From Mycobacterium syngnathidarum (GTDB lineage Bacteria; Actinomycetota; Actinomycetes; Mycobacteriales; Mycobacteriaceae): DNA of 64,000 nt. Position 1 is the first letter of the stretch. The number at the start of each line of letters is the position of its first letter. The stretch covers positions 1 through 64,000 of the forward strand of contig NZ_MLCL01000024.1 in assembly GCF_001942625.1 (NCBI RefSeq), in the 5' to 3' direction. The notes under the pieces were generated by a model that was not told where the DNA came from, ran no database searches, and saw only the letters and a program-made list of their open reading frames with translations. This document shows positions 5,671 to 22,715 of the stretch, piece by piece. Both the position numbers and the translations under genes were made by a program.

Positions 5671-8600
5671 TTAGTCCGCAGCCGCCTCAGCGGGCTCGGC
5701 CGGTGCTTCCACCGGCTCGGCCGGTGCCTCAGCGGGCTCGGCCGGTGCTTCCGCCGATGCCTCTGTAGATGCCTCGGCAGGTTCCGCGTCGGGCAGCTGG
5801 GCGACGAGGTACTCGGCCAGCCCACCGATGGTGGGGTAATCGAACACCGCGGTCGCATTGAGCGTGAACTTGCCACCGAACTGACTGTGCAGCCGGTTGC
5901 GAAGTTCGATCGCCATCAGCGAGTCCGTGCCGAGATCAAGGAAGCGGCTGGTCGCGGCGGGCGGTGAAGCGAGCCGCAGGAAGTTCTGCACTTCCTTCTG
6001 CAAGAACTCGGTGACGAACCCGGCACGCTGCGGCACGGGGATCTCGAGCAGTTGCTTGAGCACCTCGCTGTCGCCGACGACCTCGCCGACCGCACTCGGC
6101 AACACCAGATCGAGGATCGGCGGCCGCTGGCTGCCCAGCACCTTCGCGGCCCGCTGCCAGTTCGCCTTGAGGACGGTGGCCTGGCCGGTGCCGTTGGCGA
6201 CGACCTCGCCCAGCGCGGCCAGCGCCGCCGAAGGCTCCAGCGGAATCAGGCCCTGGGCACTGATGTTCGCAGTCGCCGCCTCCGAGGACGCCATACCGCC
6301 CTGACCCCACGGGCCGAAGTTGATGCCCGTGGCGGGCAGGCCGTGCGCCCTACGCTGCGCGATCAGACCGTCGAGCAACGCGTTGGCCGTCGCATAGTTG
6401 GACTGACCCGGTGAACCGAACAAGCTCGACACCGACGAGGACACGATGAAGAAGTCCAGATCGTCATCCTTGGTCAGCCGGTCCAGATATGCGGCGCCGA
6501 AGGCCTTGGCCGCCAACGTCGTCCGGAACCGTTCCACACTCTGCTGGCCGAGCAGCGCATCATCGAGCACGCCGGCCAGGTGCGCGATACCGGCAAGTGG
6601 TGGCAATTCCGCGCGGATCCGTTCCAGGAGCTTCGCCACCTCGGCCTCTTCACCCACATCGGCGGTGAAGACGTGGATGCGGGTCTTGTTGCGCTCGGTG
6701 ATCTCGTCGATCAACCGTTGTGCATCCGGATCGGGGGCACAACGGCTGGTCAACACGATGTCTCCGGCACCTCGCTGGGCCAGACACGACGCGGTGTGTA
6801 GACCGATCGCCCCGAGCCCGCCTGTGATGAGGTAGGTCCGGTCCGGCTGCGGTGCAAGCGGATTCGGTAGCTGGCAGACGATCTTGCCGATGTGCCGGGC
6901 CTGCTGCATCCGCCGGAAGGCCGTCCGGGCCTCGGTCAGCGGGTAGATCTCCGCGGGCAGCGGTTTCCACACCCCCTTGGCCAATCCGTCCGAGACCTCG
7001 GTGAGCAGGTCGCGGATGCGATCCGGCTCGGTGAACATCACGGTGTCCAGCGCGACGATCTCGTAGGAGACGTCGGGCCGGGCCTCGGCCATCTGCTCGG
7101 CTGACCAGATGTCACGCTTGGCGATCTCGGCGAAGCGGCCGTTGCGGGCAGTGGCCTTCAGCGTCGCTTCGATGAACCCTTCGCTGGTCAGGGAGTTCAG
7201 CACCACATCCACGCCGGCACCGTCGGTGTCGGCCAAGATCTGGTCGGCGAAGTCCGTTGTCCGCGAGTCGTAAACGTACTTCACACCCAGGTTGCGCAAC
7301 GTCGCGCGCTTGAAGGTGCTGGCCGTCGCGTAGACCTCAGCGCCGCACTGCTGTGCCATCTGGACGGCCGCCAGGCCGACACCGCCACTGGCGGCGTGGA
7401 TGAGCACCTTGTCGCCAGGCTTGAGCTGCGCCCAGTCGAAGGACAGGCGGACCGTCAGGGCCGCAGCGGGAATCGTGGCGGCCTCGACCGCGCTGACGCC
7501 GTCCGGGATCGGCGCCAGGAACTGGGCCGGCACGTTGAACCTGCTGGAGAACGCGCCCTGCATGGAGCCGTAGACGCGCTGGCCCACTTCGACTCCGGTG
7601 ACGCCCTCACCCAATTGCGTGACGACACCGGCGAAGTCACCGCCGATCGGCCCGGGGTCGCCCGGGTAGAGGCCCAGGACGTTGAGCACGTCGCGGAAGT
7701 TGAGCCCCGCGGCCTCCACCCGAACCTGCACGTAGCCCTCGTCCGGTGCGGGCACCTCTTTCTCGGTGATTCGCAGATTGTCGATCGCGCCGCGCTCGGT
7801 GGGGGCCAGGACGTAATCGTTTCCGCGAGGCACCGTGAGATGGCCGCTACGGGCCCAGGGCAGTAGCCGGGAAGCCAACAGCTTGCCTTGCCGCACTGCG
7901 ATTTCCGGCTCTTCGACCGGCGTCACCAACAGATTCGCGAGTGCCTGCACGGCTTCACCAGACCCGTCGGTGTCGACGAGCTTGGCGCGCAGCGCCGGTT
8001 CCTCGTTGATCGTGGTGCGGCCGAATCCCCACAGGGCCGCTTGCACCGGGTCGACCGGTTCCCCGGATTCGGTGGCCACTGCCCGCTCGGTGACGATCCA
8101 CAGACCGCCGGGCAATTTCACCTCTCCGCCCTGCACGGTGTGCACCGCGCTGAGCAGATTGGCGATCTCGGTCTCGAGCCGGGCCTGGCGGTCCGCGCTC
8201 GATTCCTCTGCACCCGCTGCGGTGGCCCGCCAGATAACACCGGAGAACGGCAGACCGCGTTCCTTGGCCTGGGTCAGCACCTGCCCGAGGAGTTCTGGAT
8301 CGGTGCTGTGGTCGAACGGGATGCAGCCCGGAACCTTGGCGGCCAGTTCGTCGAATCCGGCGATCAACCAGGTGCCGCTGGCGTTTTCGGCTGCGTCCTC
8401 GGCAGCCGGCGGTACCGGAACCTCGTGCCAGCCCAGGGTGTACAGCAGGCGGGTGGCGTCGCCGCCGAGTCCGCGCAGCAGTGCTTCGCGAGGCGCGCGC
8501 TTGACGGTGAAGTCACGCACGCCGCCGAGATACCGGCCATCGCGGTCGAGGTAGTCGAGATCGAAGACCTGGGTCTCGCTGTCCAGGGCGCTCTCATGCC

Positions 8601-11600
8601 ACCGGGCACGGCAGTAGAAGCGCCGCGGCATCTTCTCCTTCAACGTCACCTGCCCGTACCGCAGCGGCAGGAACAGGTCATTCACGCCCTGCTCAGCCGC
8701 CAGAAGCGCGGGGAACGCGGGGAAGGCGACACCGGTGCACAAGTCCATCAGGACCGGGTGCATCGGCTCGGTGCCGAGTTGGTCGGCGAGTTCCTCGCCG
8801 ACCAGGATGTCGCCGATCGCCTCGCCTTCGCCGAGCCACAACGACTTCAGCGAACCGGACCACGTCGGACCCCAGGCCAGTTCCAGATCGGCGAAGGTCT
8901 CGAACAACTCCTGCGGACGCATGCGTTCGAGGCGCTCGATCGCTTCGTCGACCGGATCCGACTCATCGGGGGCCTGCTCTTCGGAGAGCCCGGCGAGCAC
9001 CGTGCCTTCGGCATTCAATGACCAATCGGCGCCACGCTCCCCGTACGGGCGGCTGTGTACCTGGAACTTCCAGCCGTCACCCTCGTCCAGCGGGTGCAAC
9101 GTCAATTGCACCTCGCGAGAACTCTTCTCGGGCAGGATGATCGGCTCGTAGAAGAAGACATCCTTGGCATGCGCGGGGGTACCGACCGCGGCCAGCGCCA
9201 TCGCGGCGTATGTCGCTCCGGGGACCACCACGGTGCCGTAGATGACGTGGTCGGACAGCCAGGGCTGCGATTTGACCGACAACCGGCTGGTGTAGACCGA
9301 ATCGCCGGAGGCGAGGTCCTTTCCACTGCCGAGGATCCCCGATCCCACGGCACCGTTGACATCAGCGGTGATTCCGGTGCCCTTGGGCCAGAAGCGACGT
9401 CGCTGGAACGGGTAGGTCGGCAACTCGAGTCGCCGCCTGGGCCCGCGATGCAGGGCGCCGAAATCGGGCCGGTGACCGCCGACGTAGGCCGAGGCCAGTG
9501 CGTCGGCGATCTGCCGCCGATCAGAGACGCCCTTCCGCATGGAGACGATCGCACGCGGCGCCGCCAAGTGTTCCGGCCAGACCTGCACCGCGGCTCCGGT
9601 CAGCACCGGTTGCGGACCGATCTCCATCAGAATCGAGCAGCCCAGCGCGGCCACTGTGCGCACGCTCTCGGCGAACTGCACCGGCTGGCGGGAATGCCTG
9701 CGCCAGTACTGGGCGTCGAGTGGGGTCTGGGCGGTGAGCACGGTGCCGGTGCGGTTGCAGACCAGCGGCATCGTGGGCTTCGCGAACTGCAACTGCCCTG
9801 CGTAGGCCTCGAATTCGTCGAGCACCGGATCGAGCAGTTCGGAGTGGAACGCGTGGCTGGTCTCCAGCCAGGTGCACCGGACCCCGTCCTCCTCGAACTT
9901 CTCGACGATCTGTTCGAGGTCGTCACCCGGCCCCGACAGCACGGTGTTGGGCCCGTTGTAGGCGCCCACCGAGACCCGCGGAAATCCACCGGCGATCTGT
10001 TCGACGTGCTTGGGGTCGGCGAATACCGCCACCATGCGCCCACCTTCGGGCAGGCTGCCGAACAGTCGTCCGCGCTCGGCCATCAGACGGGCGCCGTCTT
10101 CGAGGCTGAACACCCCGGCAACGCATGCCGCGGCGTATTGGCCGACACTGTGCCCGAGCACGACGTCGGGTTCGATCCCCCAGGACTGCCACAGCCGGGC
10201 CAGGCCCATTTCCACGGCGAAGATCGCCGGCTGCGCAAATGAGGTGTGCCGCAGTGTTTCTGCGGCCTTGCCTCCGGTTTCACGGTTGTCGGCCAGCAGC
10301 ACGTCGAGCAGTGGTTGCGGCAAGATGTCGTTGACCGCGTCCGCGCAGCGGCGGACCGTTTCGGCGAAAACGGGTTCGGTGTCGAACAACTCACGCGCCA
10401 TGCCGGCGTACTGGCTGCCCTGCCCGGTGAACAGCCACGCCGTCATCGGGTGATGCGGGCGCTCGCCCCGTACCACACCGTGCCGCAGTCGGTTCTCGGC
10501 CAGTTCGGCCAGCCCTGCACGGGCCTCGGCGACCGAATCCACGACCAGAGCGGCGCGATGTTCGAAGTGCGAACGGCCCGTCCCGGCAGTGAGGCACAGG
10601 TCGGCGAGATCCGCGTCGGGGTGGTTGCCCAGCCAGGTTTCGTACCGCTGGGCCAATGCCGCCAGCGCTTCGGGCGACCGGGCGGACAGGGCCAGCACCT
10701 CTACCTGCTTGGGCTGCTTTTCCATTGCTGCACCGTTGTTTTCCGGTGCCACCCCCTCGGCGAGATCCCCGCCGGTCTGGTGCTCATCAGCGGGCGCGGC
10801 CTCGGGCGCCGGTGACGGGGCTTCTTCGACCAGCACGTGGGCGTTGGTCCCGGTGAATCCGAAGGAGCTCACGCCGGCACGTCGCGGCCTGCCGTTGGCC
10901 TGCCACGGCATCGCTTTGTCCACCACCTGTACGGGCAGCGAATCCCACGGGATGTGCGGTGACGGATTCTCGAAATGCAGGCTCTGCGGCAGAGTTTCGT
11001 GCTGCAGCGACAGCACCACCTTGATCAGGCCGGCTGCCCCGGAGGCCGACTCGGTGTGGCCGATGTTGGTCTTCACCGACCCCATCAGCAAGGGTCGGTC
11101 GGCATCACGCGAGCCGCCGTAGGCAGCCGCGGCCGCCTGCACTTCGATGGGATCACCCAGCGGGGTCCCGGTTCCGTGTGCCTCGAGGTAGTCGACATCG
11201 CCTCCGTTCAGGCCGGCCCGGGCCAGCACGGTACCGATGAGGCGTTGCTGGGCACCGCCATTGGGCACGGTCAGGCCGCTCGAAGCGCCGTCCTGGTTGA
11301 CCCCGCTGCCCGGGATGACCGCGCAGATCCGATCGCCGTCGCGCTGCGCGTCGCTCAGCCGCTTGAGGACCAGGATTCCGCAGCCTTCACTGCGGACGTA
11401 GCCGTCGGCGGACGCGTCGAACGTCTTGCACCGCCCGACCGGCGAGAGCATCCGGGCGCGGGACGCGGCGACCACGGTCACCGGAGACAGCAGGACGTTC
11501 ACGCCGCCTGCCACTGCCATGTCGCAATCGCCGGATTGCAGTGCCTGGCAGGCCTGGTGGACGGCGACCAACGCCGAGCTGCACGCGGTGTCGACTGCCA

Positions 11601-14600
11601 CCGCGGGCCCCTCGAGCCCGAGCGCGAAGGCGACGCGGCCCGAAATGGCGTTGAGCGCGTTGCCGGTGATGAAGTGCGGCTCGATCTTGTCGATCGGCTC
11701 TGCTGACAGCAGGTGCGCGTACTCGTTGGCGGCCACACCCACGAACACACCGGTTCGGCTGCCGCGTAGGCGCTCAGGTGAATGCCCGGCTCTTTCCAGG
11801 CCTTCCCACACCGTTTCGAGGACCAGTCGCTGCTGCGGTTCGATCCAAACTGCCTCGCGCGGAGAGATGCCGAAGAACTCAGGATCGAATCCGTCGATGC
11901 CGTCGAGGAACCCGCCGTGGCGCGTGTAGGTCTTCCCGGGCGCGTCCGGGTCCGGGTCGAAGAACTCGTCGATGTCGAAGCGTTCCTCCGGCACTTCCCG
12001 GATCGCGTCGACGCCACCGGACAGCACGTCCCAGAACGCTTCGGGGTTCGGTGCGCCGGGGAACCGGCACGACACCGCGACCACGGCGATCGGGTCGTCG
12101 GTGCGCGTCGCGGCCACCGATGCGGTTGTCGGGTCGGACTTCTGCTCGGCCAGTCCGAGTACCTCGCCGAGCAGGTAGTCGGCCACGTCGGATATCCGGG
12201 GATGGTCCATCACCACGGTGACCGGGATTTCCTTGCCCACGCCCTGTTCCATGCGGCGGCGCAATTCGACGGCCATCAGTGAGTCCATGCCCAGGTCGAA
12301 GAACCCGGCGTCCTCACGGATTTCGCCGGCATCGACGCGGGTCACTTCGGCGACGGAGTCGCGCAGGTAATCCGTCAGGAGCTTCTTACGTTGCTGCACC
12401 GGGGCATTCGTGAGCTGCTCGACCAGCTTGGTCTTGCCGGATGCGGTGACCGGCGACGCCGTGCCCGACTGGGCGGGCAGTTCACCTTCCAGCTCTGCCA
12501 GGAATCCCCGCCGGCCCGCCTGCTGGAACAGCGGCAGGAATCGGGACCAGTCGATACGCGCGATCACTCCCTGCGCGGGGCCGTGCGCCGAAGAGGCCGC
12601 CACCACATCGGCCAGGCCGGCCAGTGCGTCGGACGGCGACAGCGGCTTGATTCCGCGTTGCTCGAGCCGGGCACGGGATTCCGCGTCGGCCATACCTGCC
12701 GACCAGGGACCGAAGTTGACGCTGGTGCCGGCGATGCCCTGATTGCGCAGGCGCCAGGCCAGCCCGTCCAGGAACGCGTTCGCCGCGCTGTACGCGGTCT
12801 GACCGAACCCGCCCCACACCGATGCGATCGAGGACGTGCTGATGAAGAAATCGAGGTTGTCGTCGGCCGTGGCTTCACTCAGATGCCAGGCGCCCCAGAC
12901 CTTCCCGGCGAAGACCCGGTCCACCTCGGCGTCGTCGAGCTCGCTCAGCGGAGTGGTGCCGTTCTCACCCGCGGCGTGCACGATGCCCGCGAGCGGCGGC
13001 AGCTCAGCCCGCACACTGGTCAGAAGGCGTGCGACGTCGTGGGCGTCGGCGACATCGGCCGTGGCGACCCGGATTTCGCAGCCGTGCTGGGAGCACAGTG
13101 CGTCGATGTGTTTCTGAGCGGCCTCACTTGGCTGGCGGCGACTGGTCAGCACCAACTGCTTGGCACCGTGCGCGGCCAGGTAGCCGGCGACCTCGAGTCC
13201 GATGGAGCCGAGCCCCCCGGTCACCAGATAGGTTGCGGTATCGCGCAATTCCAGCGGCTTGCCGCTCGGCAGATCCTGTGGTCGCACCAGCCGGGGCACG
13301 TAGACGTCTTGACCGCGCAGCGCGATCTGGTCTTCCTTGACCGCCGATTCGGATCCCGTCGTGATGCGGTTGAGCAGCGTGGACCATTCGCCGGACGTGA
13401 CGTCGGACAGATCGGCCAGACCACCCCACAGTTGAGGAAGCTCAAGGGCCGCGGCGCGGCCGAATCCCCACAGGGCGCTCTGCTCGGGTGTCACGGTGTC
13501 CGCGTCGGTGACGCACTGTGCTCCGCGGGTGACGAGCCAGATGGGTGCCCTGAGATCAGCGGCGACCGCCGCGCGGAAGAGTCGCCGCGTTCCGGCCAGG
13601 ATCTGGTGTTGCATGCGCAGCAACGACCGCATCGAGGGGACACCGTCGGAGTCCACCGCGGCGACGTGGATGATCCGCGTCGTCGAATCGCCTGCCGCCG
13701 CGACGCGCAACGTGTCTGCGAGCTGCTCCTCGTCGGTGTCCGATGCCGGCAGTCCGAGGATCCGGTATTGCTGTCCGCGTGCGGTGAGTGCCTCGACCAG
13801 GGGTTTGACGGCTTCGGATTCCTCGCCGATGAGGATCCAGGAGCTATCGGCGGCGTCGGATCCGGACAGCGGTGTGAGGGCTTTGTCCCAGCGGAACTCG
13901 TAGCGGTCGTCCGTGATGGACTGCGTCGAGCGTTGCTGATTGTGCTGCGCGGCAAGCTTGGTCAGTACCGCCCGGGTTTGATCGTCGTCGCCTGCGCCAC
14001 CGAGCAGGGCCGCGAGCTCTTCGATGCGGCCGTCCTCGAGAAGGCGGACTGCCTGGGTGCGGGCGGCCACGTGCTGTTGCTGGTTCGGCTCTTCCCGGTT
14101 GTCGCGGTACCAGTACTGGCGGTGCTCGAACGGGTAGGTCGGCAGGTCGAGCTTTCGCGCGTGCGGCTGCCGGAAGGCGCCGAACTCGGGCAGGTGGCCC
14201 AACACGTATGCATCGGCCACGGCTTCGGTGATCTGCCGATGGTCGGCGGTGTTCGGCCGCAACGAGGCGATCACCCGCGGTGCGGTGGCCGGGTCGGGCC
14301 ACGCGCCGAGGGCCGTTGCGGTGAGCACGGGGCGGGGACCGATCTCCAGCAGCACCTTGCAGTTCAGATCGGCCAGGGTGCGCACGCTCTTGGCGAACTC
14401 CACCGGTTGGCGCGCGTGACGGCGCCAGTACGCGCCATCCATCTTGACGCTGCGTCCCAGCGCGGCGCCGGTGCGGTTGTCGATCAGAATCCGTTGTGGT
14501 GCTTGAAAAGTGAACTGGTTTGCGTATGCCTCGAACTCGTCGAGGATCGGCTCGAGCAACGCCGAGTGGAATGCGTGGCTGGTCTCCAGCCAGTCGCACC

Positions 14601-16788
14601 GGATTCCGTCGGCGGCCAATCCGGCCACCGCTTTCTCCAGGTCCGCGACCGGTCCGGACAGCACGGTGTTGGCACCGTTGTACGCCGCCACCGACAGCGT
14701 GGGGTACTCGTCGGTGAGGCTTTCGACCCGTTCGGCCGCGGTGAACACCGCCACCATCCGGCCACCTGCGGGAAGGCTGCCGAAGAGGCGGCCGCGTTCG
14801 GCCATCAGCTTGGCGCCGTCTTCGAGGCCGACCACTCCCGCGACGCAGGCCGCCGAGTACTGACCGACGCTGTGACCGAGCACCACGTCCGGTTCGATTC
14901 CCCAGGACTGCCAGAGCCGCGCCAAGCCCATTCCCAGGGCGAACAGCGCCGGCTGGGCGTAGGACGTCTGCCGTAACGTCTCTTCGGCACCGGGGCTGTC
15001 CAGGTCGAAAATGACGTCCAGCAAAGGCTTTTCGAGCATGTCGGCGACCGCGGCCGCACACCGGTCCAGGGTTTCGGCGAACACGGGTTCGGTGTCGTAC
15101 AACTCGCGGGCCATGCCGGGGTACTGGCTGCCCTGACCGGTGAACAGCCAGGCCGTCTTGGGGGTGTCATGAGATTCCCCGCGGACCAGGCCGGGGGCCG
15201 GGCGGTCGTCTGCCAGCGCCCCGAGGAGTTCGACCGCGGCGTCTCGGGAATTGACCACCAGCGCGGCGCGGTGTTCCAGGTGTGCTCGTCCGACTCCGGC
15301 GGTCAGGCACACGTCGGCCAAGGTGGCTTCCGGGTGCGCGGTCAACCAGCTGCGGTACTGGTCAGCGAGCTGCACGAGGGCCCCGGGCGTGCGCGCCGAC
15401 AGCGGAAGGATGCTGAATCGCCTGTCCTCGGACACTCCGGCCGCCTCAGGCACGACCACCGGAGTCGGTTCGGGCGCTTCTTCGAGGATGACGTGCGCAT
15501 TGGTGCCGGCGAACCCGAACGAGCTGACGCCTGCGATGCGAGGTTGACCGTTGCGTTCCCACGGCCGCGAATCCTTGACGACCTCGACTGCCAGCCGGTC
15601 CCACGGAATGTGCGGCGATGGGTTTTCGAAGTGCAGGTGCTTGGGTAACGTCTCGTTTTCGAGCGACAGGATCACCTTGATGACGCCGGCGATCCCGGCG
15701 GCTGCTTCCAGGTGCCCGATGTTCGTCTTCGCTGAGCCGATCAGCAGGGGTCGCTCGGCGTCGCGCCCGGATCCGAGCACTGCACCGGCGGCCTGGGCCT
15801 CGATCGGATCACCCAGTGACGTTCCGGTGCCGTGTGCTTCCAGGTAACCGACTTCGCTGGGTTCGACGCCCGCACGTTTCAGGGCGGCGGCGATAACCCG
15901 TTGTTGTGCTACACCATTCGGCACGGTCAGCCCGCCGGATGCGCCGTCCTGGTTGATTGCGCTGCCGCGAATCACGGCTCGAATCTGGTCACCGTCGCGG
16001 ACCGCGTCGTCGAGTCGTTTGATGACGATGACGCCGCAGCCCTCGCCGCGCACATAGCCGTCGGCGGCGGCGTCGAATGTCTTGCAGCGGCCGTCGGGTG
16101 CCAGCATGTGCGCGCTCGAGAAGGTGATCATGGTGGCCGGAGTGAGCAGGACATTCGCCCCACCGGCCAGCGCGAGATCGCACTCGCCAAGGCTCAGCGC
16201 CTGGCACGCCTGGTGGATTGCCACCAGCGATGAGCTGCACGCCGTGTCGACCGCGACCGACGGACCCTGCAAGCCCAACCGATAGCTGATCCGCCCCGCT
16301 GCCGCGGCATTGGAGGTCCCGATGGCCATGTAGGCCTCGATCTCGGGGTACGTCAGCTCGTCAGACGCCATTCCCAGGTAGTCGTGGGTGGCCAGGCCGA
16401 CGAAGACACCGGTGTTGGTGTCGGCCAAAGCTGTTGGTGCCGTGCCGGAATGCTCGACGGCGCGCCACGAAGTCTCAAGCAGAAGTCGATGTTGAGGGTC
16501 CATCAAGCGGACCTCGCGGGTCGACATCCCGAAGAACGGTGCGTCGAACCCGGTTACGTCGTCGACGAACCCGGCGCGCCGCGTGACGACCTTGCCGGGC
16601 GAGCCCGGTTCCGGGTCGAAGAACTCGTCGGCGTCCCAGCGGTCCTGGGGTATCTCCGAGACCGCGTCGCGGCCTTCGCGCAACACGTCCCAGAACGCTT
16701 CGGCGTCCGGAGCGCCGGGAAAACGCGCCGCATAGCCGATTACGGCAAAGCGAGGGGTGGTTTCGGTCGGATGGTCGGCGATTCCCAT
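5671..16788 (-). CDS. pks: Bimodular type I polyketide synthase of the TPP locus
   Basis: A 3705-residue cytoplasmic PKS. Order of domains (approximate residues): KS 10-435 (Cys184), AT 546-820 (Ser640), KR 1188-1380, ACP (Ser about 1502); KS 1568-1985 (Cys about 1737), AT 2117-2400 (Ser about 2213), DH about 2500-2770 (HVIYGTVVVP), ER about 3010-3300, KR 3320-3490, ACP (Ser about 3623). Both AT domains carry HAFH, the malonyl-CoA signature. Module 1 has no DH or ER: the AT-KR linker looks like the KR structural subdomain only. There is no thioesterase; an Ala/Pro/Glu tail ends the protein. Start 16788 has AAGGAG nine bases upstream. The architecture and neighbours match the PKS that makes phleic acids for trehalose polyphleates (MSMEG_0408 type). 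It is divergent from papA3. Confidence 0.93.
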   Translation of the reverse strand: MGIADHPTETTPRFAVIGYAARFPGAPDAEAFWDVLREGRDAVSEIPQDRWDADEFFDPEPGSPGKVVTRRAGFVDDVTGFDAPFFGMSTREVRLMDPQHRLLLETSWRAVEHSGTAPTALADTNTGVFVGLATHDYLGMASDELTYPEIEAYMAIGTSNAAAAGRISYRLGLQGPSVAVDTACSSSLVAIHQACQALSLGECDLALAGGANVLLTPATMITFSSAHMLAPDGRCKTFDAAADGYVRGEGCGVIVIKRLDDAVRDGDQIRAVIRGSAINQDGASGGLTVPNGVAQQRVIAAALKRAGVEPSEVGYLEAHGTGTSLGDPIEAQAAGAVLGSGRDAERPLLIGSAKTNIGHLEAAAGIAGVIKVILSLENETLPKHLHFENPSPHIPWDRLAVEVVKDSRPWERNGQPRIAGVSSFGFAGTNAHVILEEAPEPTPVVVPEAAGVSEDRRFSILPLSARTPGALVQLADQYRSWLTAHPEATLADVCLTAGVGRAHLEHRAALVVNSRDAAVELLGALADDRPAPGLVRGESHDTPKTAWLFTGQGSQYPGMARELYDTEPVFAETLDRCAAAVADMLEKPLLDVIFDLDSPGAEETLRQTSYAQPALFALGMGLARLWQSWGIEPDVVLGHSVGQYSAACVAGVVGLEDGAKLMAERGRLFGSLPAGGRMVAVFTAAERVESLTDEYPTLSVAAYNGANTVLSGPVADLEKAVAGLAADGIRCDWLETSHAFHSALLEPILDEFEAYANQFTFQAPQRILIDNRTGAALGRSVKMDGAYWRRHARQPVEFAKSVRTLADLNCKVLLEIGPRPVLTATALGAWPDPATAPRVIASLRPNTADHRQITEAVADAYVLGHLPEFGAFRQPHARKLDLPTYPFEHRQYWYRDNREEPNQQQHVAARTQAVRLLEDGRIEELAALLGGAGDDDQTRAVLTKLAAQHNQQRSTQSITDDRYEFRWDKALTPLSGSDAADSSWILIGEESEAVKPLVEALTARGQQYRILGLPASDTDEEQLADTLRVAAAGDSTTRIIHVAAVDSDGVPSMRSLLRMQHQILAGTRRLFRAAVAADLRAPIWLVTRGAQCVTDADTVTPEQSALWGFGRAAALELPQLWGGLADLSDVTSGEWSTLLNRITTGSESAVKEDQIALRGQDVYVPRLVRPQDLPSGKPLELRDTATYLVTGGLGSIGLEVAGYLAAHGAKQLVLTSRRQPSEAAQKHIDALCSQHGCEIRVATADVADAHDVARLLTSVRAELPPLAGIVHAAGENGTTPLSELDDAEVDRVFAGKVWGAWHLSEATADDNLDFFISTSSIASVWGGFGQTAYSAANAFLDGLAWRLRNQGIAGTSVNFGPWSAGMADAESRARLEQRGIKPLSPSDALAGLADVVAASSAHGPAQGVIARIDWSRFLPLFQQAGRRGFLAELEGELPAQSGTASPVTASGKTKLVEQLTNAPVQQRKKLLTDYLRDSVAEVTRVDAGEIREDAGFFDLGMDSLMAVELRRRMEQGVGKEIPVTVVMDHPRISDVADYLLGEVLGLAEQKSDPTTASVAATRTDDPIAVVAVSCRFPGAPNPEAFWDVLSGGVDAIREVPEERFDIDEFFDPDPDAPGKTYTRHGGFLDGIDGFDPEFFGISPREAVWIEPQQRLVLETVWEGLERAGHSPERLRGSRTGVFVGVAANEYAHLLSAEPIDKIEPHFITGNALNAISGRVAFALGLEGPAVAVDTACSSALVAVHQACQALQSGDCDMAVAGGVNVLLSPVTVVAASRARMLSPVGRCKTFDASADGYVRSEGCGILVLKRLSDAQRDGDRICAVIPGSGVNQDGASSGLTVPNGGAQQRLIGTVLARAGLNGGDVDYLEAHGTGTPLGDPIEVQAAAAAYGGSRDADRPLLMGSVKTNIGHTESASGAAGLIKVVLSLQHETLPQSLHFENPSPHIPWDSLPVQVVDKAMPWQANGRPRRAGVSSFGFTGTNAHVLVEEAPSPAPEAAPADEHQTGGDLAEGVAPENNGAAMEKQPKQVEVLALSARSPEALAALAQRYETWLGNHPDADLADLCLTAGTGRSHFEHRAALVVDSVAEARAGLAELAENRLRHGVVRGERPHHPMTAWLFTGQGSQYAGMARELFDTEPVFAETVRRCADAVNDILPQPLLDVLLADNRETGGKAAETLRHTSFAQPAIFAVEMGLARLWQSWGIEPDVVLGHSVGQYAAACVAGVFSLEDGARLMAERGRLFGSLPEGGRMVAVFADPKHVEQIAGGFPRVSVGAYNGPNTVLSGPGDDLEQIVEKFEEDGVRCTWLETSHAFHSELLDPVLDEFEAYAGQLQFAKPTMPLVCNRTGTVLTAQTPLDAQYWRRHSRQPVQFAESVRTVAALGCSILMEIGPQPVLTGAAVQVWPEHLAAPRAIVSMRKGVSDRRQIADALASAYVGGHRPDFGALHRGPRRRLELPTYPFQRRRFWPKGTGITADVNGAVGSGILGSGKDLASGDSVYTSRLSVKSQPWLSDHVIYGTVVVPGATYAAMALAAVGTPAHAKDVFFYEPIILPEKSSREVQLTLHPLDEGDGWKFQVHSRPYGERGADWSLNAEGTVLAGLSEEQAPDESDPVDEAIERLERMRPQELFETFADLELAWGPTWSGSLKSLWLGEGEAIGDILVGEELADQLGTEPMHPVLMDLCTGVAFPAFPALLAAEQGVNDLFLPLRYGQVTLKEKMPRRFYCRARWHESALDSETQVFDLDYLDRDGRYLGGVRDFTVKRAPREALLRGLGGDATRLLYTLGWHEVPVPPAAEDAAENASGTWLIAGFDELAAKVPGCIPFDHSTDPELLGQVLTQAKERGLPFSGVIWRATAAGAEESSADRQARLETEIANLLSAVHTVQGGEVKLPGGLWIVTERAVATESGEPVDPVQAALWGFGRTTINEEPALRAKLVDTDGSGEAVQALANLLVTPVEEPEIAVRQGKLLASRLLPWARSGHLTVPRGNDYVLAPTERGAIDNLRITEKEVPAPDEGYVQVRVEAAGLNFRDVLNVLGLYPGDPGPIGGDFAGVVTQLGEGVTGVEVGQRVYGSMQGAFSSRFNVPAQFLAPIPDGVSAVEAATIPAAALTVRLSFDWAQLKPGDKVLIHAASGGVGLAAVQMAQQCGAEVYATASTFKRATLRNLGVKYVYDSRTTDFADQILADTDGAGVDVVLNSLTSEGFIEATLKATARNGRFAEIAKRDIWSAEQMAEARPDVSYEIVALDTVMFTEPDRIRDLLTEVSDGLAKGVWKPLPAEIYPLTEARTAFRRMQQARHIGKIVCQLPNPLAPQPDRTYLITGGLGAIGLHTASCLAQRGAGDIVLTSRCAPDPDAQRLIDEITERNKTRIHVFTADVGEEAEVAKLLERIRAELPPLAGIAHLAGVLDDALLGQQSVERFRTTLAAKAFGAAYLDRLTKDDDLDFFIVSSSVSSLFGSPGQSNYATANALLDGLIAQRRAHGLPATGINFGPWGQGGMASSEAATANISAQGLIPLEPSAALAALGEVVANGTGQATVLKANWQRAAKVLGSQRPPILDLVLPSAVGEVVGDSEVLKQLLEIPVPQRAGFVTEFLQKEVQNFLRLASPPAATSRFLDLGTDSLMAIELRNRLHSQFGGKFTLNATAVFDYPTIGGLAEYLVAQLPDAEPAEASTEASAEAPAEPAEAPAEPVEAPAEPAEAAAD
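5687..5749. repeat. 21-bp tandem repeat in the PKS C-terminal tail
   Basis: Three adjacent 21-base units (5687-5707, 5708-5728, 5729-5749) encode a seven-residue Glu-Ala-Pro-Ala-Glu-Pro-like repeat. Units one and three are identical; the middle one differs at four positions. The tail begins after the last ACP and is probably a flexible linker. Confidence 0.8.
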
Positions 16789-17009
16789 GCCGTTGTACTC
16801 CTTGCATCGGCGGTCACACGGTGACTGCGCGGGACATTTATCGCACGCGAAAATTGTCCGCCCCCCGACGGCACTACGCACTATGTCAGACGAACCTGTG
16901 ACGTGTGGTGCCTAGGGTGTGGCCTCAGGTGGGGTGGGCAGTTGCCGGGGGGCCGGGGGTATGTTGGGCAAGATCACGGCCATTGCGGCCAAACTGGGAG
17001 GGCAACGCT
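16789..17009. promoter_or_regulatory. Divergent pks/papA3 control region
   Basis: This 221-base gap should hold both promoters of the TPP locus. For papA3, TATGTT (16960-16965) is a reasonable -10; TAGGGT (16913-16918) is another. Toward pks, GTCAC-ACG-GTGAC (16813-16825) is a small palindrome close to the pks Shine-Dalgarno site and could be an operator. No clear -10 toward pks could be chosen. Confidence 0.45.
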
Positions 17010-18431
17010 TTGCGCATTGGCAAGATAACTGTTGGGGCACTTGAGGAATGGACGTTGAGTCCGGGCTCGGTAACTTCCTGGCATCCGACGGCAGCGGCTC
17101 AGGAAACTGCGAACCGCGCTCCACTGAGCGAGGTTCCGGTTAGCTACATGCAGAGCCAACATCTTAAGAATTACTGTGACAGAACCTCTGCGGGGCTTAA
17201 CTTCTCGCGCCAGATCATCGCCAGTTGTGAAGTGCCTGGACGGTGTGATATCGCAGCGATGGACCATGCGGTCAACTCCTACCTGCGCAGGCACGACACG
17301 TTCCGCAGTTGGTTCAAACAGACCGACGACGGCAAATTTGTTAGACATGCAATCGAAGATCCGGCGGAAATCGAGTTCATGCCGGTCGATCAGGGCCACA
17401 TGACCGTCGACGAAATACGCGATCACGTCGTGGGGATACCGAACCCACTGGAGTGGGGCTGCTTCACTTTCGGCATTATTCAGAACGAGAATCATTTCAC
17501 GTTCTTTGCCGCCATGGATCACGTGCACGGTGACGCCACCTTGATCGGCACGACGATGATGGAAGCCAATGGCATGTATTCGGCGATGAGCGGCAGTGGC
17601 CAGGCACTCGAGCTGCCGGAAGCGGGAAGCTTCGACGATTTCTGTGTCCGCGAACGCGAGTACACGTCGGCCCTGACGCTGGATTCGGCAGGTGTGCGCG
17701 CATGGATCGAGTTCGCCGAGAACAATCGTGATGGTTTCCCGGAATTCCCACTGCCGCTTGGTAATCCGGACAAGTCATTGAGCAGTGCCTGGAGTTCTCA
17801 GGTTTTGATGGACACACCGCAGACGGAGCGCTTCGATGCGGCATGTGCGGCCGCGGGCGCCCGTTTCGTCGGCGGATTGTTTGCCTGCCTTGGTCTGGTC
17901 GAGCATGAGTTCACCGGTGCACTCACCTATTACGGTCTCACGCCGAGAGATTCGCGTACGGCGGGCGACAATTTCATGACGCAAGGGTGGTTTACCGGCC
18001 TGATCCCGATTGTCGTACCCGTCGCGGCGACCTCTTTCAGCGACGCCGCCGGCGCGGCTCAGGCGTCATTCGATTCGGGTCTGGACATGGCGAGGGTGCC
18101 GTACTACCGCGTGTTGGAGTTGGCGCCGTGGTTGAACTGGCCGCAGCCGAACTTCCCGGTTTCCAATTTCCTGCACGGCGGTGCAGCACCGCTCAACGCT
18201 ATCCTCGCTGCAGGCGATCTGGGCCTCGCGAACAACATCGGGATGTACCCGGACAATCGGTTCTCGTACCAATTGACGATCTACATCTTCAGGTACGGCG
18301 AGGGCACGGTGATGGCGATCATGCATCCGGACAATGCGGTCGCCAAGAAATCGGTCACGCGGTACATGGACGCAATGAGGTCGGTGGCTTCGCGGGTTGC
18401 TGACAGCGGGCACTGGGGGCGCGTCGCGTAG
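17010..18431 (+). CDS. papA3: Trehalose acyltransferase PapA3
   Basis: A 473-residue polyketide-associated acyltransferase of the condensation-domain superfamily. It carries the catalytic HxxxD as HVHGD (about residues 171-175) and the second-half motif YYGLTPRDSRTAGD (about 310). It aligns from its first residues (RIGKITVGALEEW) with M. tuberculosis PapA3, and ends similarly. I use a TTG start at 17010 with GGGAGG eight bases upstream; the longer reading from 16905 adds a Trp/Gly/Pro-rich stretch foreign to the family. In the TPP pathway PapA3 transfers acyl chains, including the PKS product, to trehalose, giving a diacyltrehalose-type intermediate. It works on the cytoplasmic side, before MmpL10 export. 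The gene is followed after 51 bases by mmpL10, in the same operon. Confidence 0.92.
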   Translation: MRIGKITVGALEEWTLSPGSVTSWHPTAAAQETANRAPLSEVPVSYMQSQHLKNYCDRTSAGLNFSRQIIASCEVPGRCDIAAMDHAVNSYLRRHDTFRSWFKQTDDGKFVRHAIEDPAEIEFMPVDQGHMTVDEIRDHVVGIPNPLEWGCFTFGIIQNENHFTFFAAMDHVHGDATLIGTTMMEANGMYSAMSGSGQALELPEAGSFDDFCVREREYTSALTLDSAGVRAWIEFAENNRDGFPEFPLPLGNPDKSLSSAWSSQVLMDTPQTERFDAACAAAGARFVGGLFACLGLVEHEFTGALTYYGLTPRDSRTAGDNFMTQGWFTGLIPIVVPVAATSFSDAAGAAQASFDSGLDMARVPYYRVLELAPWLNWPQPNFPVSNFLHGGAAPLNAILAAGDLGLANNIGMYPDNRFSYQLTIYIFRYGEGTVMAIMHPDNAVAKKSVTRYMDAMRSVASRVADSGHWGRVA

Positions 18432-18482: not shown

Positions 18483-21461
18483 ATGCGACGGCTAGCCGAT
18501 TTCGTGGTGCGGTGGCCCTGGGCGGTGATCGGGGTCTGGGCGGCACTGCTGGTGGCTCTGCCGCTGGCATGTCCGTCGCTGAGCGACATGGCCCAGAAGC
18601 ATCCGCTCGCCATCCTGCCCAGCGATGCACCGTCGAGTGTCACCGCGGAAAAGATGACCGAGGCGTTCCACGAATCGGGGAACAACGACCTGCTGTTGGT
18701 GGCCCTGATCAACGAGAACGGGCTCGACCGCTCTGACGAGGCGACCTACCGCAAGCTGGTGGACGCGCTGCGCGACGACGTCGCTGACGTCGAGAGCGTG
18801 CAGGACTTCGTCGCCACCCCACAACTGCGGCAGTTTCTGACCAGCAAGGACAAGACCACCTGGGTCCTCCCGGTGGGGCTGGCCGGTGAGTTGGGCACAC
18901 CGCGGGCCATCGACTCCTTCAACCGGGTTTCCGAGATCGTCAAGCTCAGTACGGCCGGTAGCCCACTGCAGGTGCACCTCACCGGGCCCGCGGCCACCGC
19001 CGCCGACCTCACCGTCGCGGGGGAGAACGATCGGCTGCCGATCGAGATCGCCATCGCGGTCCTGGTGCTGGCCGTGTTGTTGGTGGTCTACCGAAGTCCG
19101 GTCACCATGCTGTTGCCGCTGGTGACCATCGGCTCGTCCCTGCTCATCGCGCAGGCACTGGTGGCGGGGTTCTCCGCGTTGACCGGTGCCGGCGTCTCGA
19201 ATCAGTCCGTCGTGTTCCTGAGCGCGATCATGGCCGGTGCGGGCACGGACTATGCGGTGTTCCTGATCAGCCGCTATCACGACTATCTGCGGTCGGGGGA
19301 TGGCTTCGACCAGGCGGTTCGCGCGGCGATGCTGTCGATCGGGAAAGTGATCACGGCGTCGGCCGCGACGGTGGGGGTCACCTTCCTGCTGTTGAGCTTC
19401 ACCAAGATGGGCGTGTTCAGAACGGTCGGAGTGGCCGCAGCGATCGGTATCGCCGTCGCCTACCTGGCCGGGCTGACGTTGCTGCCGGCCATCCTGACGC
19501 TGGTCGGACCACGCGGATGGGTCAAGCCGCGGCGCGAACTGACCTCCCGGTTCTGGCGGCGGTCGGGAATCCGCATCGTGCGCAGACCGGTGCCGCACCT
19601 CGTCGCCAGTCTTGTGGTGCTGGCCTTGCTGGCCGGTGCCGCGATCTTCGCCCAGTACAACTATGACGATCGCAAGGTCGTGGACGCGTCGGCCCCGAGT
19701 TCGGTCGGCTACGCCGCGGTCGAACGTCACTTTCCGATCAGTCAGTCGATTCCCGAGTACATCCTGATCCAGTCTCCGCACGACCTGCGCACCCCCAAAG
19801 GCATGGCGGACCTGGAGCAGATGGCTTCGCGCGTAGCCCAGCTGCCCGACGTGGGCCTGGTCAGCGGCATCTCCCGGCCCCTGGGCGAGGTGCCTGCCGA
19901 GTTCCGGGCCACGTTCCAGGCCGGCATCGTCGGTACCCGGCTGGCCGACGGTTCCCAGCAGATCGACCAGCGCTCAAGTGACCTCAATCGACTGGCCGCC
20001 GGGGCCAATACGCTGGCCAGCAGCCTCGCGCAGGTGCGAGCTCAGATCAACCAGATCGCGCCCAGTCTGCAGAGTGTGGTCGACACCTTCTCGTCGGTGC
20101 GCACCGAATACGGTGGCGACAAACTGGTGAAGGACGTCGAAACCGCGGCCAAGCTCGTGCAGAGCATCAATGCGCTGTCCAACGCGATGGGATACAACCT
20201 GTCGGCGGTCAAGAACATCTTCGGCTGGATCGAGCCTGTCCTGGCGGCGCTACAGAACAACGCGGTCTGCGACAACAACCCGTCCTGCGCGGAAACCCGG
20301 GTCCAGTTTCAGCGACTCGTCGACGCGAACAACGGCGGCAGCCTCAACGAGATCAACGATCTCGCCCACCAGTTGAACGGCGCGGGAGACGACAAGCAGA
20401 CCGTCAACTCCACGGTGACCAAGCTGAACGCGGCACTGGCCAGCGTCAACAAGGCCGTCAAAGCCATGGGGCTCAACAAGCCCGGTGGCCCGCAGTCGGG
20501 CCTGAAGGATCTGCAGCAAGGTGCCAACCGCCTGGCCGGCGGAAGCCGGGAGGTCGCCGGCGGCGTGGACGAACTCGTCAAGCAGATCAAGGTGATCTCC
20601 TCCGGATTGGACCAGGCCTCGTCATTTCTGTTGACGATGCGCAATGAAGCGACCGATCCGGCACAGGCGGGGTTCAACATCCCGCCCGAGGTGCTGAACA
20701 TGCCCGAGTTCAAGAAGGCCTCGGCGGCATACGTTTCGCCGGACGGCCGCTCGGTGCGGTATCTGGTCCAGACCGAGCTCAACCCGTTCAGCTCCGAGGC
20801 GATGGATCAGGTCAACCAGATCCAGGACGTCGCCCGGGGTGCCCAGCCGAACACCACGCTTGCTGACGCCGAGATCTCGATGGGTGGCTTCCCGGCCGCA
20901 CTTCGCGATACGCGTGACTACTACCAGCAGGACATCAAGTTCATCATGATCGCGACCCTCGTCGTGGTCCTGGCGATCCTGATGTTGCTGTTGCGTTCGA
21001 TTCTGGCACCTCTCTACCTCGTCGGGTCGGTGTTGGTCTCATACTTCGCGGCGTTGGGTATCAGTGTCCTGGTGTTCCAGAACCTGCTCGGCGAGCAATT
21101 GCATTGGAGCGTGCCCCCACTCGCGTTCGTGGTGCTCATCGCGGTGGGTGCCGACTACAACATGCTGTTGGTGTCGCGTCTGCGCGACGAGTCTCCGCAC
21201 AGCACGCGCTTCGGTGTCATCCGCACCCTGAGTTCGACGGGAGGCGTGATCACCGCCGCGGGTCTGATCTTCGCCGCCTCGGTGGCCGGCCTGATGTTCT
21301 CTTCCATCGGCATAGTGGTGCAAGGCGGTTTCATGATCGGGGTCGGCATCCTGCTGGACACGTTTGTGGTGCGCACCATCACGGTGCCGGCCATCGCGGC
21401 CCTGATCGGTAAGGCGAACTGGTGGCCCTCGCGCGCCGCGGGCGGGAGGTTGCGCACGTGA
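18483..21461 (+). CDS. mmpL10: RND lipid transporter MmpL10
   Basis: A 992-residue inner-membrane transporter of the MmpL family, about 12 membrane helices in two MMPL halves. Paired Asp-Tyr motifs for proton relay are visible: GTDYAVFLISRYHDY (about residues 256-270) and GADYNMLLVSRLRDE (about 892-906). The second periplasmic loop is long (about residues 390-820) and rich in heptad-like helices, with a Cys pair (AVCDNNPSCAE, about 597-607) that could form a disulfide; this fits the coiled-coil class of MmpL proteins. Family knowledge and context say it moves the diacyltrehalose intermediate of TPP across the inner membrane. Its place between papA3 and the secreted acyltransferase fits that step. 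Confidence 0.93.
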   Translation: MRRLADFVVRWPWAVIGVWAALLVALPLACPSLSDMAQKHPLAILPSDAPSSVTAEKMTEAFHESGNNDLLLVALINENGLDRSDEATYRKLVDALRDDVADVESVQDFVATPQLRQFLTSKDKTTWVLPVGLAGELGTPRAIDSFNRVSEIVKLSTAGSPLQVHLTGPAATAADLTVAGENDRLPIEIAIAVLVLAVLLVVYRSPVTMLLPLVTIGSSLLIAQALVAGFSALTGAGVSNQSVVFLSAIMAGAGTDYAVFLISRYHDYLRSGDGFDQAVRAAMLSIGKVITASAATVGVTFLLLSFTKMGVFRTVGVAAAIGIAVAYLAGLTLLPAILTLVGPRGWVKPRRELTSRFWRRSGIRIVRRPVPHLVASLVVLALLAGAAIFAQYNYDDRKVVDASAPSSVGYAAVERHFPISQSIPEYILIQSPHDLRTPKGMADLEQMASRVAQLPDVGLVSGISRPLGEVPAEFRATFQAGIVGTRLADGSQQIDQRSSDLNRLAAGANTLASSLAQVRAQINQIAPSLQSVVDTFSSVRTEYGGDKLVKDVETAAKLVQSINALSNAMGYNLSAVKNIFGWIEPVLAALQNNAVCDNNPSCAETRVQFQRLVDANNGGSLNEINDLAHQLNGAGDDKQTVNSTVTKLNAALASVNKAVKAMGLNKPGGPQSGLKDLQQGANRLAGGSREVAGGVDELVKQIKVISSGLDQASSFLLTMRNEATDPAQAGFNIPPEVLNMPEFKKASAAYVSPDGRSVRYLVQTELNPFSSEAMDQVNQIQDVARGAQPNTTLADAEISMGGFPAALRDTRDYYQQDIKFIMIATLVVVLAILMLLLRSILAPLYLVGSVLVSYFAALGISVLVFQNLLGEQLHWSVPPLAFVVLIAVGADYNMLLVSRLRDESPHSTRFGVIRTLSSTGGVITAAGLIFAASVAGLMFSSIGIVVQGGFMIGVGILLDTFVVRTITVPAIAALIGKANWWPSRAAGGRLRT

Positions 21462-21529
21462 GCACGGGTGAGCGCGCACGCGTGATGTGTGTGAAACTAC
21501 GAAACGAACCGGGGTGATCGGGAGTGGAG

Positions 21530-22669
21530 ATGAAGAAACTCCTTGCAGGACTTGCTTTGCTGATGACCACCAGCGTCACCGGATCCTTCGGCGTCGTCGG
21601 GAACGCGTGGGCCGATGACGCCCCGCCGCCCGTGCCTCCGCCCGGCGGCCCGGCCGCACCGACGCCGTCGAACCCCGGGACCGCTTTCGCCTTGGGCGGC
21701 GCGCACGTTCTCGGGATCCCCTACGACGAGTACATCCGGATGACCGGTGAGCACTGGTTCCCCGGGATGAAGCGAACGAAGGTCGACTACCCGGCGGGCC
21801 AGGTTCAGGGCCATACCCTGGAACGTTTGTTCCCCGGCATCGGTGCGGTCGGAGAGCGGTTCTATCCGGGAATCGGCCTTGACGGGCCCAGCATCGGCGA
21901 GTCGGTCGATGAGGGCGAGGGAAACCTCGACGCGGCAATCCGCAACGGCGGCAAAGGAACAGCGATGGGGCTGTCCGAGGGCGCGCTCGTGCTCAACGCT
22001 GTGAAGGCGCGCCTGGCCAACGACCCGAGTGCCCCGCCGCCAGACCAGCTGAGCTTCGCGACATTCGGCGATCCGATCGCCAAGCATCCCTTCGGCGAGA
22101 GTTTCCTGACCCAGAACTTCCCCGTCGGCAGCGTCGTGCCGTTCATGGACTACCGCATCCCGGCGCCGGTGGAGAGCCAGTACCACACCGACCAGTTCAT
22201 CTCCGCCTACGACAGCATCGCGGACTGGCCGGACCGGCCGGACAATTGGATGAGCGTCATCAACGCGATCGCCGGGTTGGCCACCGGTCACACCGCGATC
22301 GCGTTCACCAATCCGAGTAACGTTCCGCCGCAGAACATCAGGACGACGGTCAACTCCAAGGGTGCGACAACGACGACGTACCTGGTGCCCGAGGAACACC
22401 TGCCGCTGGTGTTGCCGTTCAAGTACCTCGGATATGACCAGCACACACTCAACGAGCTGGACCGGGTACTGCTGCCCATGGTGGATGCCGGTTATTCGCG
22501 AAACGACGATCCAGCAACCGCGCCGGTCACGGTGGACCCGGTACACGGGTTCGACCCGGCCGAGGTCACCGCTCCTGCCAACGAGGCGACCTTCGGTGGC
22601 GGCACCGACCCGATGTCGGAGCTGGCCAATGCGGCGTTGTCGGTGCTGAACCCGAACGGCGCGGGCTGA
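21530..22669 (+). CDS. Secreted PE-PPE-domain acyltransferase/esterase of the TPP locus
   Basis: A 379-residue protein with a Sec signal peptide ([15 protein letters not shown], cleavage likely after NAWA near residue 28) and a short Pro-rich linker. The PE-PPE alpha/beta-hydrolase domain (about residues 55-290) has the nucleophile elbow GLSEG (Ser about residue 149). An in-frame GTG six bases upstream is an alternative start; GGGAG five bases before 21530 favours this ATG. It belongs with Chp1/Chp2, the membrane-bound acyltransferases that finish sulfolipid-1 and polyacyltrehalose by transesterification. The gene called PE in the TPP locus is required to convert the diacyl intermediate to TPP. 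Here it should act on the outer face of the membrane after MmpL10. Confidence 0.87.
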
Positions 22670-22715
22670 CGCCCTCTCCAACCCGATTGATTCGACCAGT
22701 TACGGACGTGATGTG

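What the first reader, a model, noticed from the sequence alone, without database searches (positions are those of the whole stretch)
5671..16788. Module 1 of the PKS has no DH, although the expected product needs dehydration after module 1
Phleic acids repeat a -CH=CH-CH2-CH2- unit. Each repeat needs one extension left as an alkene and one fully reduced. Module 2 has DH, ER and KR, but module 1 has only KR before its ACP. So either the module 2 DH also dehydrates the module 1 product, or the alkene is placed by another route, and the two modules must be used again and again in alternation. A two-module enzyme acting iteratively as a pair would be an unusual PKS programme. Both AT domains carry HAFH, consistent with malonyl units and an unbranched chain.
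Basis: partly seen in the sequence, partly recalled or inferred. Interest (0 to 1): 0.72.

Follow-up and report, generated by a model that had tools for sequence, protein, structure and literature searches.

The report
Two-module enzyme sharing one dehydratase
This mycobacterial enzyme builds long fatty chains with a double bond every four carbons from two repeated modules, and although only one module carries the water-removing domain, sequence evidence suggests that this one domain removes water twice per cycle, so the missing domain is part of the programme and not a defect.

Summary
Confirmed: the PKS at 16788-5671 (-) is KS-AT-KR-ACP / KS-AT-DH-ER-KR-ACP. The AT1-KR1 stretch is accounted for by a KR with a dimerisation-element-like linker. 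It belongs to the published trehalose polyphleate (TPP) locus, and the domain map of the M. abscessus orthologue is in print. The missing DH is conserved: in 224 of the 224 relatives (of 319 fetched) where the first module's AT and KR are both visible, no DH lies between, also in Methylosinus and a Vicinamibacterales MAG. New: the module 2 DH is not ordinary. Its closest solved relative by far is CurH DH (E 1.5e-44, next 2.3e-18), with which it forms a supported clade. A 2025 paper states that CurH and CurJ DHs eliminate two waters from 3,5-diols to give dienes. KR1 carries A-type and KR2 B-type motifs, implying a (3R,5S)-diol on ACP2. Most likely DH2 removes both waters after the second extension, ER2 saturates only the new alkene, and the 4-enoyl chain returns to KS1. 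No activity was tested. Iterating module pairs have a precedent (Pks12). New variant of a known kind.

The parts
5671..16788 (-). bimodular type I PKS, KS-AT-KR-ACP-KS-AT-DH-ER-KR-ACP, TPP-type (from ATG, residue 32 of the 3736-aa ORF)
15472..16749 (-). KS1 (about residues 45-470)
   Evidence: Pfam; active-site motif
14272..15156 (-). AT1, HAFH (malonyl-type motif)
13918..14055 (-). dimerisation-element-like linker after AT1 (residues about 943-988)
   Evidence: alignment to Lsd14, model matched to 4imp; no Pfam hit
12472..13239 (-). KR1 catalytic half; no LDD, Trp1356 present: A-type motifs
12814..12816 (-). Trp1356, A-type KR marker
   Evidence: W in 65 of 65, 187 of 190
12166..12414 (-). 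ACP1
   Evidence: Ser in 190 of 190
10822..12096 (-). KS2
9472..10440 (-). AT2, HAFH
8452..9339 (-). DH2, CurH-clade dehydratase, proposed to act twice per cycle
9247..9249 (-). His2545, DH2 catalytic His (HVIYGTVVVP)
   Evidence: 65 of 65, 190 of 190
8872..8874 (-). Trp2670 where most DHs have Tyr of GxxYGPxF
   Evidence: 65 of 65, 189 of 190
8743..8745 (-). Asp2713, DH2 active-site Asp
   Evidence: 65 of 65, 190 of 190
8731..8733 (-). Gly2717 (Asp+4) where the 25 DHs outside the clade have Gln or His
   Evidence: 190 of 190; table
6862..7791 (-). ER2
6112..6834 (-). KR2 catalytic half, LDD motif: B-type
5812..6054 (-). ACP2
16905..18431 (+). PapA3-like acyltransferase (Condensation family)
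   Evidence: divergent neighbour in 63 of 63 loci longer than 21 kb
18483..21461 (+). MmpL10-like transporter
   Evidence: match in 63 of 63
21524..22669 (+). PE-PPE domain protein (pe of the TPP locus)
   Evidence: match in 61 of 63
22713..24470 (+). FadD23-like AMP-binding enzyme
   Evidence: match in 63 of 63

Best explanation
The PKS is a phleic acid synthase whose two modules are used in alternation, and its single DH removes two waters per cycle. KS1 takes the starter (or the returning chain). Module 1 adds a malonyl unit, and its A-type KR leaves an L-3-hydroxyacyl on ACP1 with no dehydration. KS2 extends this, and the B-type KR2 makes a (3R,5S)-3,5-dihydroxyacyl on ACP2. DH2, a CurH-type domain, eliminates the 3-OH in the ordinary way, and then the 5-OH by the vinylogous route (gamma-proton removal), giving a 2,4-dienoyl-ACP2. 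ER2 reduces only the 2,3 bond, leaving a 4-enoyl chain that goes back to KS1 (same or neighbouring chain) for about 5-6 rounds, until PapA3 moves it to trehalose. Shown: domain order, conserved lack of a module 1 DH, motif types, clade of DH2, gene neighbourhood. Inferred: stereochemistry, double elimination, ER selectivity, iteration, release.
For: DH2's best solved relative is CurH DH, 26 orders of magnitude ahead of the next. Trees put DH2 with CurH and a Nostoc DH (98/87, 98/96). PMC12828468 (passages) says CurH and CurJ DHs do sequential eliminations from 3,5-diols to dienes. KR1 lacks LDD and has Trp in 187 of 190; KR2 has Leu/Ile, then Asp (186), Glu (3) or Ala (1), then Asp in 190 of 190. 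PMC5331325 (passages) names these markers and reports a DH that took B-type but not A-type alcohols. No DH lies between AT and KR of the first module in 224 of 224 testable relatives, so the programme is stable, also in Methylosinus at 55% identity. No dehydratase-type domain was found in the 19 other ORFs scanned between 0.4 and 36.6 kb of the window. Precedent for the module pair: gladiolin modules 12/13 (PMC10921412 passage).
Against: No activity was measured. The CurH clade does not always follow a DH-less module: the Nostoc relative is in the first extension module of its protein, and the long-branch member L111/L118 is a one-module protein. CurJ, the other published diene former, lies outside the clade. 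The site that is His in the gladiolin enzyme is Trp here and Tyr in CurH, so no catalytic residue for the second step is identified. In the strobilurin PKS the residue at Asp+4 (H1082) is essential (PMC12828468), and here it is Gly. The tree tool warns of long branches meeting. The DH2 model is of low confidence (pLDDT 57.6), and VIA-align does not single out CurH. Three of 190 relatives lack the KR1 Trp (P0239, P0241, P0307), none with LDD.
Confidence: 0.6

Rival explanations
1. DH2 reaches across and dehydrates the 3-hydroxyacyl on ACP1 before KS2 takes it; KS2 then extends an enoyl chain and module 2 reduces fully.
For: Also needs only DH2. A long-range acting DH is reported for iso-migrastatin (title in a reference list; mentioned in PMC6916388, passage). 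Some DHs do take L-alcohols: FosDH2 gives a Z product from an L-triketide (PMC12828468 passage).
Against: PMC9899208 (introduction read) says loss of a domain tends to be met by downstream stuttering or a free enzyme rather than by domains of other modules.
Confidence: 0.22
2. A separate enzyme (free dehydratase, or a desaturase acting on the finished chain) places the alkene.
For: A FadE-like acyl-CoA dehydrogenase lies next to the PKS (window 4276-2417).
Against: No dehydratase domain in the 19 other ORFs scanned between 0.4 and 36.6 kb; the rest of the window was not scanned. The published locus has five genes, none a dehydratase (PMC10465359 passage). Alkenes at every fourth carbon fit module alternation better than a desaturase (inference). 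Not excluded genome-wide: no genome is held for the window.
Confidence: 0.08
3. The product is not phleic acid: module 1 hydroxyls stay, or the enzyme makes another lipid.
For: Only the locus identity links this PKS to TPP here. Relatives with divergent KR1 motifs and with a third module exist.
Against: PapA divergent and adjacent, MmpL and FadD matched in 63 of 63 and PE in 61 of 63 loci longer than 21 kb; pks mutants of M. abscessus and M. smegmatis lack TPP and complementation restores it at least partly (PMC10465359 passages).
Confidence: 0.07
4. A cryptic or degenerate DH hides between AT1 and KR1.
For: None found.
Against: The stretch is covered by linker and KR, and the AT1-KR1 gap is 307-374 residues in 190 relatives, against 864-914 for AT2-KR2.
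Confidence: 0.02

Closest known systems
TPP PKS (MSMEG_0408, MAB_0939)
   Same: Orthologue: same domain order (P0070 from M. abscessus), similar length (3,697 residues for MAB_0939) and neighbours; PMC10465359 describes its domain map (legend and text passages).
   Different: No difference in kind seen; the DH2 chemistry is not discussed in the passages I read.
CurH dehydratase (curacin PKS, 3kg7)
   Same: Nearest solved relative of DH2; shared clade; both lack Gln/His at Asp+4 and Gly three before the Tyr/Trp site.
   Different: About 29-31% identity; CurH has Tyr where DH2 has Trp; curacin is made in one pass (recalled), whereas here an ER would remove one of the two alkenes every round.
Gladiolin module 12/13 diene-forming DH variant
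   Same: A module that leaves a hydroxyl, then a module whose DH-like domain turns the diol into a diene (PMC10921412 passage). The (3R,5S) substrate is recalled from Hobson 2022, not read.
   Different: trans-AT PKS; has a His at the Tyr site (PMC12828468 passage), where DH2 has Trp.
Pks12 (mycoketide synthase)
   Same: One two-module mycobacterial PKS used over and over ('modularly iterative', PMC11574752 passages).
   Different: Both Pks12 modules are fully reducing and alternate methylmalonyl/malonyl with terminal docking domains (same passages); here both ATs have malonyl motifs, module 1 lacks DH and ER, and no docking domain was hit by Pfam.
Epothilone modules 4/5
   Same: Recalled: a module without DH whose alkene depends on the next module's DH; only the paper's title was seen in a reference list.
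   Different: Single pass; not read.

Membership tests
TPP-type phleic acid PKS | KS-AT-KR-ACP-KS-AT-DH-ER-KR-ACP in one protein of about 3700 aa | tested here: met
   same order in P0070, M. abscessus
TPP-type phleic acid PKS | papA3, mmpL10, pe, fadD23 alongside | tested here: met
   window genes; matches in 63/63, 63/63, 61/63, 63/63 loci longer than 21 kb
TPP-type phleic acid PKS | makes phleic acids | not testable with these tools
   needs lipid analysis
CurH-type diene-forming DH | sequence clade with CurH apart from ordinary DHs | tested here: met
   controls; long-branch warning
CurH-type diene-forming DH | catalytic His and Asp kept | tested here: met
   190 of 190
CurH-type diene-forming DH | follows a module that leaves a hydroxyl | tested here: met
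   but not a clade-wide rule (Nostoc, L118)
CurH-type diene-forming DH | converts a 3,5-diol to a diene | not testable with these tools
   needs enzyme assay
Gladiolin-type diene-forming DH | His at the Tyr site of GxxYGPxF | tested here: not met
   Trp2670; W in 189 and L in 1 of 190
Pks12-like modularly iterative PKS | two modules in one chain | tested here: met
[quoted passage not shown]
   no Pfam docking hit; the Methylosinus N-terminus looks like a coiled coil by eye
Pks12-like modularly iterative PKS | both modules fully reducing | tested here: not met
   module 1 has KR only
Pks12-like modularly iterative PKS | the module pair is used repeatedly | not testable with these tools
   needs enzyme assay
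A-type KR (KR1) | no LDD, Trp at position 141 | tested here: met
   W in 65/65, 187/190; aligned with the Trp of an AmphB KR, titled A-type
A-type KR (KR1) | makes an L-alcohol | not testable with these tools
   needs assay
KR-only module with dimerisation element | helical dimerisation element before the KR | tested here: inconclusive
   aligns with Lsd14 and, in the model, with 4imp, but helices at pLDDT 48-60 and no Pfam hit

The most novel reading that the evidence does not exclude
This is one member of a widespread enzyme family that prints 1,5-polyenes: a two-module repeater in which one CurH-type DH removes two waters per turn and the ER spares the inner alkene. The family reaches beyond mycobacteria (Methylosinus, a Vicinamibacterales MAG, and unnamed metagenomic proteins that group with them). 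Variants ending in a thioester-reductase-like domain may release the chain as aldehyde or alcohol, and variants with an extra fully reducing module in front may space the alkenes by six carbons or lengthen the starter.
Probability: 0.4. Interest if true: 0.75.

Novelty: new variant of a known kind. Interest (0 to 1): 0.58.

Why it matters
Phleic acids have been known since 1969 (citation in PMC5524727, passage), and TPPs are required for infection by the therapeutic phages BPs and Muddy (PMC10465359), but the passages I read do not say how the alkenes are set. If the reading is right, a DH point mutant, a diol substrate and an NMR of the double-bond geometry settle it. It would describe a compact, self-repeating enzyme for 1,5-polyenes and give a sequence signature (E/D-x-x-W-G and D-x-C-[TS]-G in the DH; one relative departs from it) for finding more.

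Tried and rejected

Row drops and recount: of 80 loci, 64 gave complete PKS ORFs without X and away from the locus ends; with the window they are the 65-row set; 16 were left out (cut, masked or split, e.g. L045; not mended). Models used 45 of these 65 rows. Tree left out L083, L102, L110, L115, L116, L117 (duplicates, one cut, one weak). Of 319 fetched relatives, 190 show the full two-module order; since 'complete' was defined by that order, it is not a test of it, so I recounted: 224 show AT, KR, ACP, KS of the first-module junction and all 224 have AT directly before KR; 95 do not show it. Of ten that read KS-AT-DH-ER-KR-ACP, nine begin at or shortly before a KS2-type KS and one (P0225) may be a real one-module protein. 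Two (P0022, P0077) carry an extra module. The DH was sought by BLAST with DH2 at 1e-4, which did find the 28%-identical DH of the extra module. The relatives are the top rows of three searches, overlap with the loci, and are not independent.

Full report
What is there. The ORF 16881-5671 on the minus strand (from ATG at 16788) encodes a type I PKS with two modules, KS-AT-KR-ACP and KS-AT-DH-ER-KR-ACP. Upstream and divergent lie a PapA-like acyltransferase, an MmpL transporter, a PE-PPE protein and a FadD. This is the trehalose polyphleate (TPP) locus. In 63 of 63 loci longer than 21 kb (of 80 fetched) tblastn finds PapA, MmpL and FadD, with PapA the divergent neighbour; PE is found in 61 of 63. 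The nearest named relative by the AT1-KR1 stretch is Mycolicibacterium senegalense, 91%. The M. abscessus orthologue MAB_0939 (3,697 residues) has its domains drawn in PMC10465359, where pks mutants lose TPP (text passages and legends). So locus, product class and domain order are known.

Is module 1 really without a DH? Yes. Residues 913-1498 align without break to Lsd14, a KS-AT-KR-ACP module, and 968-1471 to 4imp, a dimerisation motif plus KR. An AlphaFold2 model of residues 925-1480 made from 45 sequences (mean pLDDT 74) has 4imp as first Foldseek match over 525 columns; VIA-align lists KR-containing chains over residues 60-546 of the model. The dimerisation-element reading rests on alignment; those helices have pLDDT 48-60, and Pfam gives no hit. 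In 190 complete relatives the AT1-KR1 gap is 307-374 residues, and the AT2-KR2 stretch, which holds DH and ER, is 864-914.

Is it chance or drift? No. Of 319 fetched relatives, 224 show the first-module junction (AT, KR, ACP, KS), and in 224 of 224 the AT is followed directly by the KR; the other 95 do not show it, mostly because they are cut. The PKS on the Methylosinus sp. C49 plasmid, 55% identical over nearly its whole length, has the same order. KR1 of the window is closer to KR1 of Methylosinus (55%) than to its own KR2 (45%), and ACP1 likewise (55% against 38%), so the two modules were already different in their common ancestor. The ATs are more alike within each protein (67% in the window, 85% in Methylosinus) than between (61-62%), as if homogenised; the KSs of the window are not (62% within, 69% between).

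What kind of DH is DH2? His2545 and Asp2713 are kept in 65 of 65 and 190 of 190. Two features are odd. Trp2670 stands where most DHs have the Tyr of GxxYGPxF (W in 189 of 190), and Gly2717 stands at Asp+4 (190 of 190), where the 25 DHs outside the clade in the table have Gln or His. Against the PDB, DH2 finds CurH at 1.5e-44 and the next at 2.3e-18. In a 40-row tree DH2, its orthologues, Methylosinus, CurH, a Nostoc DH and one long-branch actinobacterial DH (L111) group with support 98/87. In a second tree of 26 rows CurH and the Nostoc DH join the bimodular family with 98/96, though the tool warns of long branches there. CurH and the Nostoc DH share with DH2 the loss of Gln/His at Asp+4 (Arg in both). 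Among 396 genomes of the phylum searched, 24 had matches at 1e-12 or better: eleven places at 1e-158 or better with long PKS frames, then nothing until 1.5e-25.

Why this matters for the missing DH. PMC12828468 (passages) states that CurJ and CurH DHs carry out sequential eliminations from 3,5-diols to give E,E-dienes, and that a gladiolin DH with a His at the Tyr site gives an E,Z-diene. PMC10921412 (passage) says that gladiolin module 12 leaves a hydroxyl and the DH-like domain of module 13 makes the diene. The arrangement here is the same, module 1 with KR only and module 2 with KR and DH, plus an ER. KR1 lacks LDD and has the Trp marker of A-type KRs (187 of 190); KR2 keeps LDD or a close form (last Asp in 190 of 190); PMC5331325 (passages) names these markers. 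So the intermediate on ACP2 before dehydration should be a (3R,5S)-diol. From memory this is also the substrate reported by Hobson 2022, which is not held. Two eliminations and one enoyl reduction leave the alkene at carbon 4, which is the phleic acid repeat. The 4,8,12,16,20 pattern is recalled; the papers I read say C36-C40 and polyunsaturated.

Iteration. The product needs several rounds from two modules. Pks12 is a described precedent (PMC11574752 passages). Pfam found no docking domains in the window protein; its C-terminus is a low-complexity Ala/Pro/Glu tail. How the chain returns from ACP2 to KS1 is open.

The wider family. The search from Methylosinus brought a second Methylosinus, a Vicinamibacterales MAG protein (P0229, partial) and unnamed proteins. 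P0226 has the full bimodule plus a C-terminal NAD_binding_4 (thioester-reductase-type) domain, and the list shows the same Pfam for P0228 and P0230. Six rows outside the mycobacterial group (P0224 and P0229 named; P0226, P0227, P0228, P0230 unnamed and placed by the tree, support 89/77) all keep Trp1356, His2545, Trp2670, Asp2713 and Gly2717. P0022 and, truncated, P0077 carry an additional KS-AT-DH-ER-KR-ACP module in front of the bimodule, with a malonyl-type HAFH AT and an ordinary DH motif.

Novelty. In the open-licence library, searches for TPP/phleic acid, for phleic with polyketide synthase, double bonds, iterative and dehydratase and for the gene names led me to passages of five TPP papers (one search counted 51 papers), none of which discuss how the alkenes arise. 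Most subscription papers are not held, Burbaud 2016 among them, so I do not claim that nobody has proposed it. The chemistry (double dehydration), the iteration of a module pair, and the locus are each known; their combination with an ER that makes isolated alkenes, and the family outside mycobacteria, are what is added.

Corrections after checking: the earlier '190 of 190 lack a DH' was circular and is replaced by 224 of 224 testable; residue ranges of the alignments, the naming of control L094 and the KS/AT comparison were mended.

Noticed in passing
L081:7630-18675 (Methylosinus sp. C49 plasmid pMSC49a): A bimodular PKS 55% identical to the mycobacterial TPP PKS in an alphaproteobacterial methanotroph, with an AMP-binding gene just upstream and TolC, ABC transporter, PPTase and another PKS nearby; no MmpL or PapA among the 12 annotated features shown.
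   Followed up: partly
P0226, P0228, P0230: Relatives of the bimodule that carry a thioester-reductase-type domain (NAD_binding_4), confirmed by own scan for P0226, listed for the others: release as aldehyde or alcohol is likely.
   Followed up: partly
P0022 (5730 aa), P0077 (4986 aa): Relatives whose bimodule is 61-96% (P0022) or 64-90% (P0077) identical to the window's by domain, with an extra fully reducing malonyl-type module and an N-terminal coiled-coil-like stretch fused in front.
   Followed up: partly
G097 (L088, L109), G378 (L087, L108): Two genomes hold two copies each of the bimodular PKS, so at least two paralogous lines exist.
   Followed up: no
P0239, P0241, P0307, P0231: Family members with divergent KR1 active-site surroundings (no Trp in the first three), possibly with a different product.
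   Followed up: no
P0225 (2160 aa): A one-module protein with a KS1-like KS joined to AT-DH-ER-KR-ACP of module 2 type; may be a real deletion or an assembly collapse between similar AT regions.
   Followed up: no
window 4276-2417 (-): FadE-like acyl-CoA dehydrogenase next to the PKS.
   Followed up: no
L082:10249-19074 (Nostoc sp. ATCC 53789 plasmid): AMP-binding/ACP/KS-AT-DH-MT-KR-ACP protein whose DH is close to CurH (E 1e-113) although it is the first extension module of the protein; perhaps another reaction by gamma-proton removal.
   Followed up: partly
L045: The PKS of M. wolinskyi ATCC 700010 is read as two open frames of 1992 and 1685 codons parted by a stop.
   Followed up: no
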